Notes under the pieces: model-generated
What the model was told of the DNA's origin: nothing
What the model saw: the letters and a program-made list of their open reading frames with translations, nothing else
Database searches by the model: none
Translations under genes and position numbers: made by a program
Shown: positions 13,245 through 57,147 of the stretch, in pieces
Position numbering within the stretch: the first letter of the stretch is position 1
Layout of the letters: every line of letters begins with the position of its first letter
NCBI GenBank assembly: GCA_028868825.1
Contig: JAGWTU010000002.1
Location: 124,001-188,000, forward strand
Length of the DNA: 64,000 nucleotides
Direction of reading: 5' to 3'
From: Burkholderiales bacterium
Lineage (GTDB): Bacteria; Pseudomonadota; Gammaproteobacteria; Burkholderiales; Burkholderiaceae_C

Positions 13245-13294
13245 CTTTGTCCGCGCTGTGCCTCGCGCCAGGGGGCACCCGGCCGGGGCTCGGG
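13245..13294 (-). repeat. Solo arm (copy C) of dispersed palindromic repeat family
   Basis: 50 bp ctttgtccgcgctgtgcctcgcgcc...cccggccggggctcggg, about 47/50 identical to the reverse complement of 56480-56529. Confidence 0.8.
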
Positions 13295-13443: not shown

Positions 13444-13746
13444 ATGCTCACCGTCCTCCAGACCGAAGAGTTCGTCGCATGGCTCGACGCTCTGAAGGAC
13501 AAGAAAGCTCGGATCCGCATTGCAACCCGCCTCCGGCAAGCGGAAGCGGGCAGTCTCGGCGACTGGAAGCCCGTCGAGGGCGAAATTTCGGAGATGCGGG
13601 TGCACTACGGCCCAGGCTACCGTCTGTAATTCGTACGCCGCGGCCGAGTCATCGTTGTCCTGTTCAATGCAGGCGACAAGTCGACCCAGAATCGCGATAT
13701 CCGCCGGGCCTTGAGGCTGGCTTCCGAACTCGGAGACGATCTATGA
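13444..13746 (+). pseudogene. RelE/HigB-type toxin interrupted by one in-frame TAA (13627-13629)
   Basis: MLTVLQTEEFVAWLDALKDKKARIRIATRLRQAEAGSLGDWKPVEGEISEMRVHYGPGYRL*FVRRGRVIVVLFNAGDKSTQNRDIRRALRLASELGDDL*; same frame continues to a TGA overlapping the antitoxin ATG. Confidence 0.85.
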
Positions 13747-14042
13747 CCAAGGCCAAATCCGCGCTCAAGCTTGTCGCATTCGATGCAGCTCGGTACCTCG
13801 ATGACGATGCAGCCATCGCCGAGTACATGACAGCCGTACTCGAAGCCAATGATCCCGATCTCCTGCTTCTCGCCCTCGGCGATGTGGCACGAGCCAAGGG
13901 AATGGCGCAAGTGGCCAAGGATGCAGGATTGGGACGTGAGAGTCTTTACAAGGCGCTAGCACCTGGCGCCAAGCCCCGCTTTGAAACCGTCATGAAGGTG
14001 GCGCGGGCACTGGGTGTCAAGTTCACGGCTCAGCCGGCCTGA
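13743..14042 (+). CDS. HigA-type addiction module antidote protein (HTH)
   Basis: MTKAKSALKLVAFDAARYLDDDAAIAEYMTAVLEANDPDLLLLALGDVARAKGMAQVAKDAGLGRESLYKALAPGAKPRFETVMKVARALGVKFTAQPA. Confidence 0.88.
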   Translation: MTKAKSALKLVAFDAARYLDDDAAIAEYMTAVLEANDPDLLLLALGDVARAKGMAQVAKDAGLGRESLYKALAPGAKPRFETVMKVARALGVKFTAQPA

Positions 14043-14624
14043 ATGCCGAACGCCCGACGCCACGACGATCTCCTGGCCATCGCCCGCGCATCCCGCTAGT
14101 TCCTGCCGGCACTCGAAGCCGTGCGATCACTGCAATTGGACTCGTGGTGCATCGGCGCCGGCGCCGTGCGCAATCTCGTCTGGGACCAACTGCATGGATA
14201 CCTGGAACCATCGATGCTCGCCGATGTCGATGTCGCGTATTTCGAACCCGGCGACACCGACTCGACGGAACGTGATGCCGATCTCGAGAGCCGGCTGCGG
14301 GAACGGATGCCGGAGCTGCCATGGGAAGTCACCAATCAGGCGCAGGTCCACACCTGGTTCGAAGGTCATTTCGGGCACGCCGTACCGCCGCTGCGGTCGC
14401 TGGAGGAAGCCATCGCTTCATGGCCGGAATACGCGACCTGCGTCGGCGTCTTCATGACGGCATCGGGGGACCTGGGCGTCATTGCGCCGCATGGGCTGGA
14501 AGATCACTTCGCGCAGCGTGTTCGCAGAAATCCCCTGCGCGTCAGTCGCGAGACCTATCGTCGGCGTATCGAGCAAAAGCAGTATTGCCTGCGCTGGCCT
14601 GGCGTGACGATCGAACCCGGTTGA
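14043..14624 (+). pseudogene. Nucleotidyltransferase family protein (NTP_transf_6-like) with in-frame TAG at 14097-14099
   Basis: ATG abuts antitoxin stop: MPNARRHDDLLAIARASR*FLPALEAVRSLQLDSWCIGAGAVRNLVWDQLHGY...DVDVAYF; the track ORF starts at an internal GTG (14121). Confidence 0.7.
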
Positions 14625-14688
14625 GACGCGAAGAAGCACCCATCCGTGCAACGCGCCCGCAAGCTCCACGCAAACCACCGACGGTCTT

Positions 14689-14929
14689 CGCAAAGGCGGA
14701 TGCGGCCCGCGCCCCGGCGCGCGTAGAGGCGCCGAGAAGCGCAGGGCTTGCGGCCGCGCGCGCAGCGCGCATCGACTTCTGACTCGGCGCCGCTTGTTTG
14801 AGCGTAGCGAACGAAGTGAGCGCAGCGAGTTCGGCGCCGGGCCGCAAGACCGAGCATCGGAGGGACGTCTGCGCGCAGCGCAGACCGCCGGGTCCGCGCG
14901 CCGGGGCGCGGGCCGCATCCGCCTTTGCG
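14689..14929. repeat. Palindromic repeat element, copy A
   Basis: 35-bp perfect inverted arms 14689-14723 / 14895-14929 flanking core tgtttgagcgtagcgaacgaagtgagcgcagcgagttc at 14795-14832. Confidence 0.9.
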
Positions 14930-15086
14930 CGCGGCGGCCTCGGCAAGCCAACCGACGGCTCGTTCGGTGACGATCAAAACCGTACCGCGGCCTGGGTTCC
15001 CAGCCTTGCGGCCGGGCGCAAAATTCGAAGTTCAAGTCCACGCGGGCAACACCGATAAGAATGCGTGGGTCCACCCACTTCGAACC

Positions 15087-56000: not shown

Positions 56001-56275
56001 GGGACCCTCTCCAGCGCCAAGCCTAAGTTTTGCGCCACGCTCCATTGCTTGCATTTCGACCGTGCCTTTGCATAACACGCATCGCTGAACTCGGCACGCT
56101 CGAAAATGCCTCGTTGCCGCAAACAAGGTCGCTGCATTAAGCCCCATTTTCCCGTATGTCGGGCCCAAGACGCCCCATGGCCCCATCCAGACAACGACCA
56201 GGCTTTGCGCAATCTGACCCCCGCGATGCTCGACCGGTCATCCGCGGGCGCCAAGACCGCCGCAGGCCACGACCC

Positions 56276-56529
56276 GTGCCTCGCGCCGGGCGGCGCCCGG
56301 CCGGGGCGAGTTGCGGCGAGGAGGAGCGCAGGTTCGGGGTCGGCGCGCGCAGCGCGCTTCGTCATCAAGCTCGTCGCGTCTGTTTGAGCGTAGCGAACGA
56401 CGTGAGCGCAGCGAGTTCAGCGACGCGACCCCGGGCCGAGCACCGCACTGGAGTCGGCGCGCAGCGACGACCGTCGCAGCCCGAGCCCCGGCCGGGCGCC
56501 GCCCGGCGCGAGGCACAGCGCGGACAAAG
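56276..56529. repeat. Palindromic repeat element, copy B
   Basis: 32-bp perfect inverted arms 56276-56307 / 56485-56516 around core tgtttgagcgtagcgaacgacgtgagcgcagcgagttc at 56381-56418 (1 mismatch to copy A core). Confidence 0.9.
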
Positions 56530-56537
56530 TTCCCCCC

Positions 56538-57056
56538 TCACCCCGCCTTCCGCACCCTCCGCCTCGGCGCCGCCCCCTCCCCCGCCAGCACCAGCGGCGT
56601 CTGCGCCTTCACCTCCTTGAGCACGATGCTCGAGCGCAGGTGCGTCACGCCGGGAAGCTTGAACAGCGTCTCGTGCAGCAACTGCTCGTAGCGCTGGATG
56701 CCGCTGCAGTGCACCGTCAGCACATAGTCCGACTGCCCCGTGGTCGAGACGCAGCCGACGATGTGCGGGCAGACCTGCACGGCGCGCTCGAAGCGCTGCA
56801 CGAGATCCTCGCTGTGCTGGCCGAGGTTGACCTCGACGAGCACGCTCAGGCCCAGCCCCACCTGCTCGCGGTCGACCAGCGCCGTGTAGCCGCGGATCAC
56901 GCCCGCCTCCTCCATCTCGCGGATGCGCTTCCAGCAAGGCGTGGCCGAGAGGCCGACGCGCTCGGCGAGCTGCTGGATCGTCTGGCGCGAATCGCGCTGC
57001 AGCTCGTCGAGGAGCCTCAGGCCGTACGCGTCGATGGAAATTTCCTTCTTCTTCAT
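56538..57056 (-). CDS. Lrp/AsnC family transcriptional regulator
   Basis: ISIDAYGLRLLDELQRDSRQTIQQLAERVGLSATPCWKRIREMEEAGVIRGYTALVD. Confidence 0.94.
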   Translation of the reverse strand: MKKKEISIDAYGLRLLDELQRDSRQTIQQLAERVGLSATPCWKRIREMEEAGVIRGYTALVDREQVGLGLSVLVEVNLGQHSEDLVQRFERAVQVCPHIVGCVSTTGQSDYVLTVHCSGIQRYEQLLHETLFKLPGVTHLRSSIVLKEVKAQTPLVLAGEGAAPRRRVRKAG

Positions 57057-57147
57057 GAGCGTTCTGGAGATTGTTCGACTCCAATTTCTGGCAATCCCTA
57101 TCGTATTCGAGAAGACATTACTCGCGTCTTGGAACAACAATCCTGCG

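What the first reader, a model, noticed from the sequence alone, without database searches (positions are those of the whole stretch)
14689..14929. Dispersed palindromic intergenic element with conserved core and swappable arms (copy A)
Seen directly: 35-bp perfect inverted arms (gcaaaggcggatgcggcccgcgccccggcgcgc and its reverse complement) enclose a 38-bp core tgtttgagcgtagcgaacgaagtgagcgcagcgagttc. The same core, with one mismatch, sits inside an unrelated 32-bp inverted repeat at 56276-56516. The core is conserved while the arms differ, which suggests a structured or mobile element family rather than an ordinary terminator. The repeat also creates the identical spurious peptide AELAALTSFATLKQ in two unrelated minus-strand ORFs (14542..14946 and 56365..57084). 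I recall similar peptides in Burkholderiales annotations but cannot verify that here.
Basis: partly seen in the sequence, partly recalled or inferred. Interest (0 to 1): 0.75.

Follow-up and report, generated by a model that had tools for sequence, protein, structure and literature searches.

The report
Giant REPIN-like folding repeat in Burkholderiales
The two look-alike palindromes are real members of a large, apparently unnamed family of dispersed ~240-base repeats, usually found as facing pairs in beta-proteobacteria, whose one strand is kept able to fold into a precise shape; they look like genome parasites that spread as single-stranded DNA, though no enzyme for this was found.

Summary
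Both palindromes belong to one covarying structural family. Own genome: 3 copies by core, 5 by covariance model. Own GTDB family: 234 of 401 sampled genomes, 88 of 141 genera, up to 26 core matches per genome. The "swappable arms" are helices whose sides change together: 96.7% of cells paired, against 30-48% when partners are slid; 38 of 50 pairs change on both sides.

Non-Watson-Crick pairs are G.T rather than A.C (180:21), so one strand is the folded one, not a cruciform. Side-hairpin tips are mostly GN(N)A loops (13 of 13 in compact ~91-nt relatives), the loop of extra-stable DNA mini-hairpins. Neighbouring long-form copies face each other, 5' ends inward, in 54 of 55 cases, mostly as one A-type plus one B-type half. 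A ~520-bp pair is dispersed in a Rhizobacter MAG, with empty orthologous sites in congeners.

Best model: a large REPIN/BIME-like non-autonomous doublet moved as single-stranded DNA. It is not a canonical REP: no Y1 transposase in this genome or in 16 of 35 other carriers, and no copies beside Y1 genes. Bordetella "BRE" may be a compact relative (untested). Mover unknown; RNA not excluded.

The parts
14687..14929 (+). copy A, an A-type half element (singlet); + strand is the folded strand
   Evidence: unit bounds from a 93% identical own-genome copy; arms; model hit 14732-14867, 146.8 bits
14689..14723 (+). left outer arm of A (type A end GCAAAGG)
14895..14929 (+). right outer arm of A (CCTTTGC end)
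14732..14745 (+). left strand of the two-fold symmetric internal loop, CCGAGAAGCGCAGG
   Evidence: covarying columns 48-61 of A1
14744..14755 (+). inner stem, 5' side (pairs with 14840-14851)
14756..14770 (+). side hairpin GCGCGC-GCA-GCGCGC with GNA triloop
14785..14794 (+). apical stem, 5' side
14795..14832 (+). conserved core: rod of CGNAG and GA steps with a CGNAG tip
14840..14851 (+). inner stem, 3' side
14850..14863 (+). right strand of the symmetric internal loop, CCGAGCATCGGAGG
14867..14885 (+). 3' side hairpin GTCTGCGC-GCA-GCGCAGAC with GNA triloop
56261..56529 (+). copy B, a B-type half element (singlet)
   Evidence: unit bounds from a 91% identical own-genome copy on C72; model hit 56319-56453, 141.1 bits
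56276..56307 (+). left outer arm of B
56485..56516 (+). right outer arm of B
56381..56418 (+). core of B (one mismatch to A)
13245..13294 (-). solo remnant of a B-type right arm, 94% identical over 50 bp
   Evidence: sequence

Best explanation
Copies A and B are single halves of a dispersed, non-autonomous doublet element: a large REPIN/BIME-like unit of B-half (-), a ~40-60 bp linker and A-half (+), about 520 bp in all. SHOWN: each half is a conserved structure of one strand (outer stem, two-fold CCGAGNANCGCAGG internal loop, inner stem, GN(N)A-capped side hairpins, apical CGNAG/GA rod) kept by compensatory change; halves face each other; units are scattered between genes, and two loci have empty counterparts in congeners. 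INFERRED: when this strand is exposed (for example as lagging-strand template) it folds, and a host-borne enzyme acting on single-stranded DNA, supplied in trans, recognises the fold and copies or moves the doublet; singlets such as the window's two are decayed halves. The GN(N)A tips and the G.A-rich rod suggest that the folded molecule is DNA rather than RNA. NOT SHOWN: the enzyme, the cut sites, or movement itself.
For: Covariation in all helices except one 2-bp pair group, 96.7% paired vs 30-48% slid. G.T 180 vs A.C 21 over 177 distinct copies (54 vs 8 in seven helices of 43 copies). Side-hairpin loops GNA 122, GNYA 13, GNRA 5 of 173, no UUCG; 13 of 13 GNA in compact relatives; GNA/GNNA loops define extra-stable DNA mini-hairpins (PMC4686876). 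Facing orientation 54 of 55; pairs typed 30 A+B, 5 B+B, 0 A+A. Near-identical ~520-bp doublets at many loci of one MAG and empty sites in congeners. Convergent 24 vs divergent 5 gene contexts. REPIN precedent for doublets as the replicating unit and singlets as remnants (PMC3116915).
Against: No mobilising enzyme identified; Y1 transposase absent from the own genome and 16 of 35 carriers. No target duplication or cut site readable; an empty site in two congeners could also be loss. Only 33 of 94 distinct long-form 3' hairpins have GNA tips. If BRE is a relative, one copy of it is transcribed (PMC3110155). Copies are related, so the counts are not independent.
Confidence: 0.5

Rival explanations
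1. The + strand is a structured non-coding RNA, mobile or domesticated, and the fold is selected at RNA level.
For: Strand-specific covariation with G.U wobbles is what a structured RNA shows; the possibly related BRE repeat of Bordetella is transcribed as an ~80-nt RNA (PMC3110155).
Against: GNA triloops and few GNRA or UUCG tetraloops; no orientation bias relative to the flanking genes (39 vs 35 co-directional); facing pairs of the same structure and empty sites look like mobile DNA; no Rfam match.
Confidence: 0.25
2. It is an ordinary double-stranded palindrome (cruciform, terminator or protein-binding site at gene 3' ends), and its perfect arms come from template-switch correction between the arms rather than from selection on a fold.
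For: Found after genes and between convergent genes; arms perfect within a copy yet different between copies.
Against: The G.T:A.C bias of 180:21 is not expected for a strand-symmetric cruciform or for arm correction; covariation also in short helices separated by conserved unpaired motifs; no T-run after the arms of the window copies.
Confidence: 0.12
3. It is a true REP/REPIN moved by a Y1 (RAYT) transposase that the own genome has lost.
For: Doublet organisation, extragenic location and structured strand as in REPINs (PMC3116915, PMC8266576); 19 of 35 carrier genomes have a Y1 gene.
Against: Y1 absent from the own genome and from several copy-rich genomes (G178, G336, G309, G158); no element within ~1.5 kb of the 20 Y1 loci; no conserved GTAG at the 5' foot; each half is ~240 nt, not 20-50 nt.
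Confidence: 0.1

Closest known systems
REPIN / BIME (REP doublets; PMC3116915, PMC8266576)
   Same: Two structured repeats in inverted orientation with a short linker; dispersed, extragenic, non-coding; heterotypic halves as in the E. coli y-z BIMEs; singlets besides doublets.
   Different: Halves are ~240 nt with a multi-module fold instead of 20-50-nt palindromes; no conserved GTAG; tens of copies rather than hundreds; no Y1 transposase in many carriers and none next to copies.
BRE, beta-proteobacterial repeat element (Hot et al. 2011, PMC3110155)
   Same: High-GC dispersed repeat of Bordetella and Comamonadaceae, intergenic, possibly mobile; its 75-91 bp matches the ~91-nt compact forms seen here.
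   Different: The long form is ~240 nt per half and a facing doublet, not a tandem 90-bp repeat. Sequence identity with BRE was not tested (no letters in the paper's text).
Integron attC sites and IS200/IS605 ends
   Same: Strand-specific single-stranded DNA folds with extrahelical bases, recognised by an enzyme (from established knowledge).
   Different: No integrase, cassette, or Y1 transposase found with it; ends and boxes were not compared in detail.
MITEs
   Same: Small, non-autonomous, inverted-repeat, dispersed.
   Different: Arms conserved by structure and not by sequence; no transposase-matched terminal repeats or target duplications found.

Membership tests
REP / REPIN | short (20-50 nt) palindrome preceded by conserved GTAG | tested here: not met
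   halves ~240 nt; no common GTAG at the 5' foot of the aligned copies; definition from PMC8266576
REP / REPIN | doublets in inverted orientation as the main unit | tested here: met
   54 facing of 55 neighbouring pairs
REP / REPIN | cognate Y1 (RAYT/TnpAREP) gene in the genome, flanked by the repeat | tested here: not met
   0 in own genome, 16 of 35 carriers without, no repeat at the Y1 loci
REP / REPIN | extragenic location | tested here: met
   (simple gene caller)
REP / REPIN | hundreds of copies per genome | tested here: not met
   3-26 core matches per genome; decayed copies and contig breaks may be missed
BRE (PMC3110155) | sequence identity to the Bordetella bprJ repeat | not testable with these tools
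   no sequence in the text, supplements not available
BRE (PMC3110155) | unit of 75-91 bp, often in tandem | tested here: inconclusive
   window copies are ~240 nt; compact relatives are ~91 nt, one locus in tandem (L150)
structured RNA family in Rfam | match to a curated covariance model | tested here: not met
   none for the window at gathering, none for copy A up to E = 10
single-stranded DNA element (attC / IS200-type logic) | pairing conserved on one strand | tested here: met
   G.T 180 vs A.C 21
single-stranded DNA element (attC / IS200-type logic) | the folded molecule is DNA | tested here: inconclusive
   GN(N)A tips favour DNA but are not decisive
single-stranded DNA element (attC / IS200-type logic) | a recombinase that acts on the fold | not tested
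   no candidate beyond Y1 was searched for

The most novel reading that the evidence does not exclude
A class of mobile bacterial doublet elements in which one DNA strand is built as a scaffold of extra-stable GNA mini-hairpins and G.A rods, recognised by a still unknown, non-Y1 enzyme that acts on single-stranded DNA; widespread across Burkholderiaceae, with compact relatives in other families of the class.
Probability: 0.3. Interest if true: 0.85.

Novelty: new variant of a known kind. Interest (0 to 1): 0.6.

Why it matters
The family occurs in more than half of the genomes sampled from the own GTDB family, tends to sit at assembly breaks and creates spurious annotated peptides, yet the open literature searched holds no description of its long, doublet, covarying form. 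If the folded strand is DNA, it would be one of the more elaborate natural single-stranded DNA structures kept by selection, and its recogniser would be an undescribed single-strand DNA system. The covariance model and the doublet definition make this testable.

Tried and rejected
Rfam and plasmid/phage BLAST with copy A: nothing. RAYT/Y1 as the mover: rejected as a general answer. Toxin-antitoxin cargo between the halves, suggested by a PIN/AbrB gene pair between A(-) and B(+) on own contig C72 and by higBA between a solo B arm and copy A: not upheld, because the 54 facing pairs elsewhere have core spacings of only 277-548 bp. Orthologous empty sites for the window copies: neighbours are not conserved in the genus and the BLAST was swamped by element copies. 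Three separate mini-hairpins in the core instead of one rod: covariation of alignment columns 130 and 142 favours the rod. BRE sequence check: no letters in the paper. Literature searches by peptide and DNA string gave only unrelated papers.

Full report
OBSERVATION. Copy A has 35-bp and copy B 32-bp perfectly complementary arms; the 38-bp core occurs exactly at 14795-14832 and with one mismatch at 56381-56418, with none expected by chance. The shared minus-strand peptide is a by-product in two ORFs. Each copy folds far more stably than shuffles, as RNA and, for copy A, as DNA.

FAMILY. The own genome (5.84 Mb, 125 contigs) has three core matches and five covariance-model matches, including a 93%-identical copy of A at the end of contig C45 and a 91%-identical copy of B on C72; these bound the repeated units at about 14687-14928 and 56261-56529. 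A scan of named genomes gives Rubrivivax, Piscinibacter, Ideonella, Methylibium, Aquincola, Rhizobacter and Inhella. A covariance model, R1, from 43 copies finds the element in 234 of 401 genomes of the same GTDB family, 88 of 141 genera. Core-pattern counts reach 26 per genome, with the backwards control at zero throughout. In a sample of 399 genomes of the phylum, strong matches are confined to this family, with shorter, weaker ones in other families of the class.

ANATOMY. Each half is about 230-245 nt. From outside inwards: outer stem (the 'arms'); a short helix; a symmetric internal loop with the same strand, CCGAGNANCGCAGG, on both sides; an inner stem; a side hairpin; an apical stem; a core rod of CGNAG and GA steps with a CGNAG tip; and a 3' side hairpin. 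On 43 copies the 50-pair consensus pairs in 96.7% of cells (30-48% when partners are slid by 1-3 columns), 38 pairs show changes on both sides, and no shuffle of 500 reaches the observed values. All six pairs counted in the symmetric-loop region are formed in all 43 copies although four of them vary. So the 'swappable arms' are helices under compensatory change, not foreign arms.

ONE STRAND. Helices chosen only by Watson-Crick pairing carry 54 G.T but 8 A.C mismatches (sum over the seven covarying or hairpin helices), and 180 against 21 over 177 distinct copies. A double-stranded cruciform would give equal numbers. The selected single strand is the + strand of the window for both copies. Copies are related, so this is a strong bias but not an exact probability.

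DNA OR RNA. First side-hairpin loops are GNA in 122, GNYA in 13 and GNRA in 5 of 173 copies, never UUCG. In compact relatives (about 91 nt, in other genera and in other families of the class) the 3' hairpin tip is GNA in 13 of 13 copies, on many different stems; a 14th compact copy, in Variovorax paradoxus VAI-C, was not classed. Loops of GNA or GNNA on G-C stems are what defines extra-stable DNA mini-hairpins (PMC4686876). The sheared G.A reading of the loop and rod is inferred from sequence, not seen in a structure. Against: only 33 of 94 distinct long-form 3' hairpins are GNA. I put DNA over RNA at about 60-65%.

DOUBLET AND DISPERSAL. Of 55 neighbouring long-form pairs, 54 face each other with 5' ends inward (core spacing 277-548, mostly 280-300), one is tandem and none faces outward. 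Where ends could be typed, pairs are 30 A+B, 5 B+B and 0 A+A. In a Rhizobacter MAG (G336) near-identical ~520-bp doublets lie at many unrelated loci. At two of them a congener has 10 and 24 bp where G336 has about 730 and 980 bp, and a second congener also lacks the unit at the first; the extra DNA also holds degenerate flanking repeats, and flanks are too diverged to read a target duplication. Elements lie between convergent genes 24 times, divergent genes 5 times, and co-directional genes 39 and 35 times by orientation (genes called by a simple codon model).

MECHANISM. Best supported: a non-autonomous, REPIN/BIME-like doublet that spreads through a folded single strand, mobilised in trans; the window copies are singlets, as REP singlets are held to be remnants of REPINs (PMC3116915). 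Shown: family, structure, strand choice, doublet, dispersal. Inferred: mobility through single-stranded DNA, recognition of the fold, mobilisation in trans. Missing: the enzyme. A Y1 transposase is absent from the own genome and from 16 of 35 other carriers including several of the copy-richest, and no element flanks the Y1 genes that are present.

KNOWN RELATIVES. It works like a REPIN, but by the tested features (length, GTAG, transposase link, copy number) it is not a REP. Searches of the open literature found no description of the long form, which does not prove that none exists.

VERDICT. A real, well-supported structured and dispersed family; a new variant of a known kind; mover and biological role open.

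Noticed in passing
window 13444-14042: higBA-like toxin-antitoxin pair: HigA (TIGR02684, 1e-34) is intact, while the HigB-like frame is interrupted by an in-frame stop. It lies between a solo B-type arm (13245-13294) and copy A.
   Followed up: partly
L237:818-2083 (own genome contig C72): A truncated A-type half (-) and a B-type half (+) face each other with an AbrB-type antitoxin gene and a PIN-like (VapC-like, named by eye) gene between them.
   Followed up: partly
L224-L236 (Rhizobacter MAG): Outside the doublets stand decayed tandem copies of the terminal arm (~45-bp units), as if ends were repeatedly added at the same place.
   Followed up: no
L009, L040, L041, L007, L230, L232, L236: In some copies part of the half is replaced by another hairpin module (GGACACAAACAGTCC..GGACTGTTTGTGCC type): mosaic structure.
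   Followed up: no
right flanks of L006, L013, L030, L076: A second dispersed motif near AACGTCCGCAACGGGCCG follows many copies.
   Followed up: no
L008, L010, L014, L024, L033: Many copies sit at contig ends of draft genomes, so the family is under-counted and breaks assemblies.
   Followed up: no
L152-L155, L157, L159, L244: Compact relatives carry after the fold a hairpin of the type CTTTCTTTG..CAAAGAAAG, which also matches Pasteurella multocida plasmids over 42 bp.
   Followed up: no
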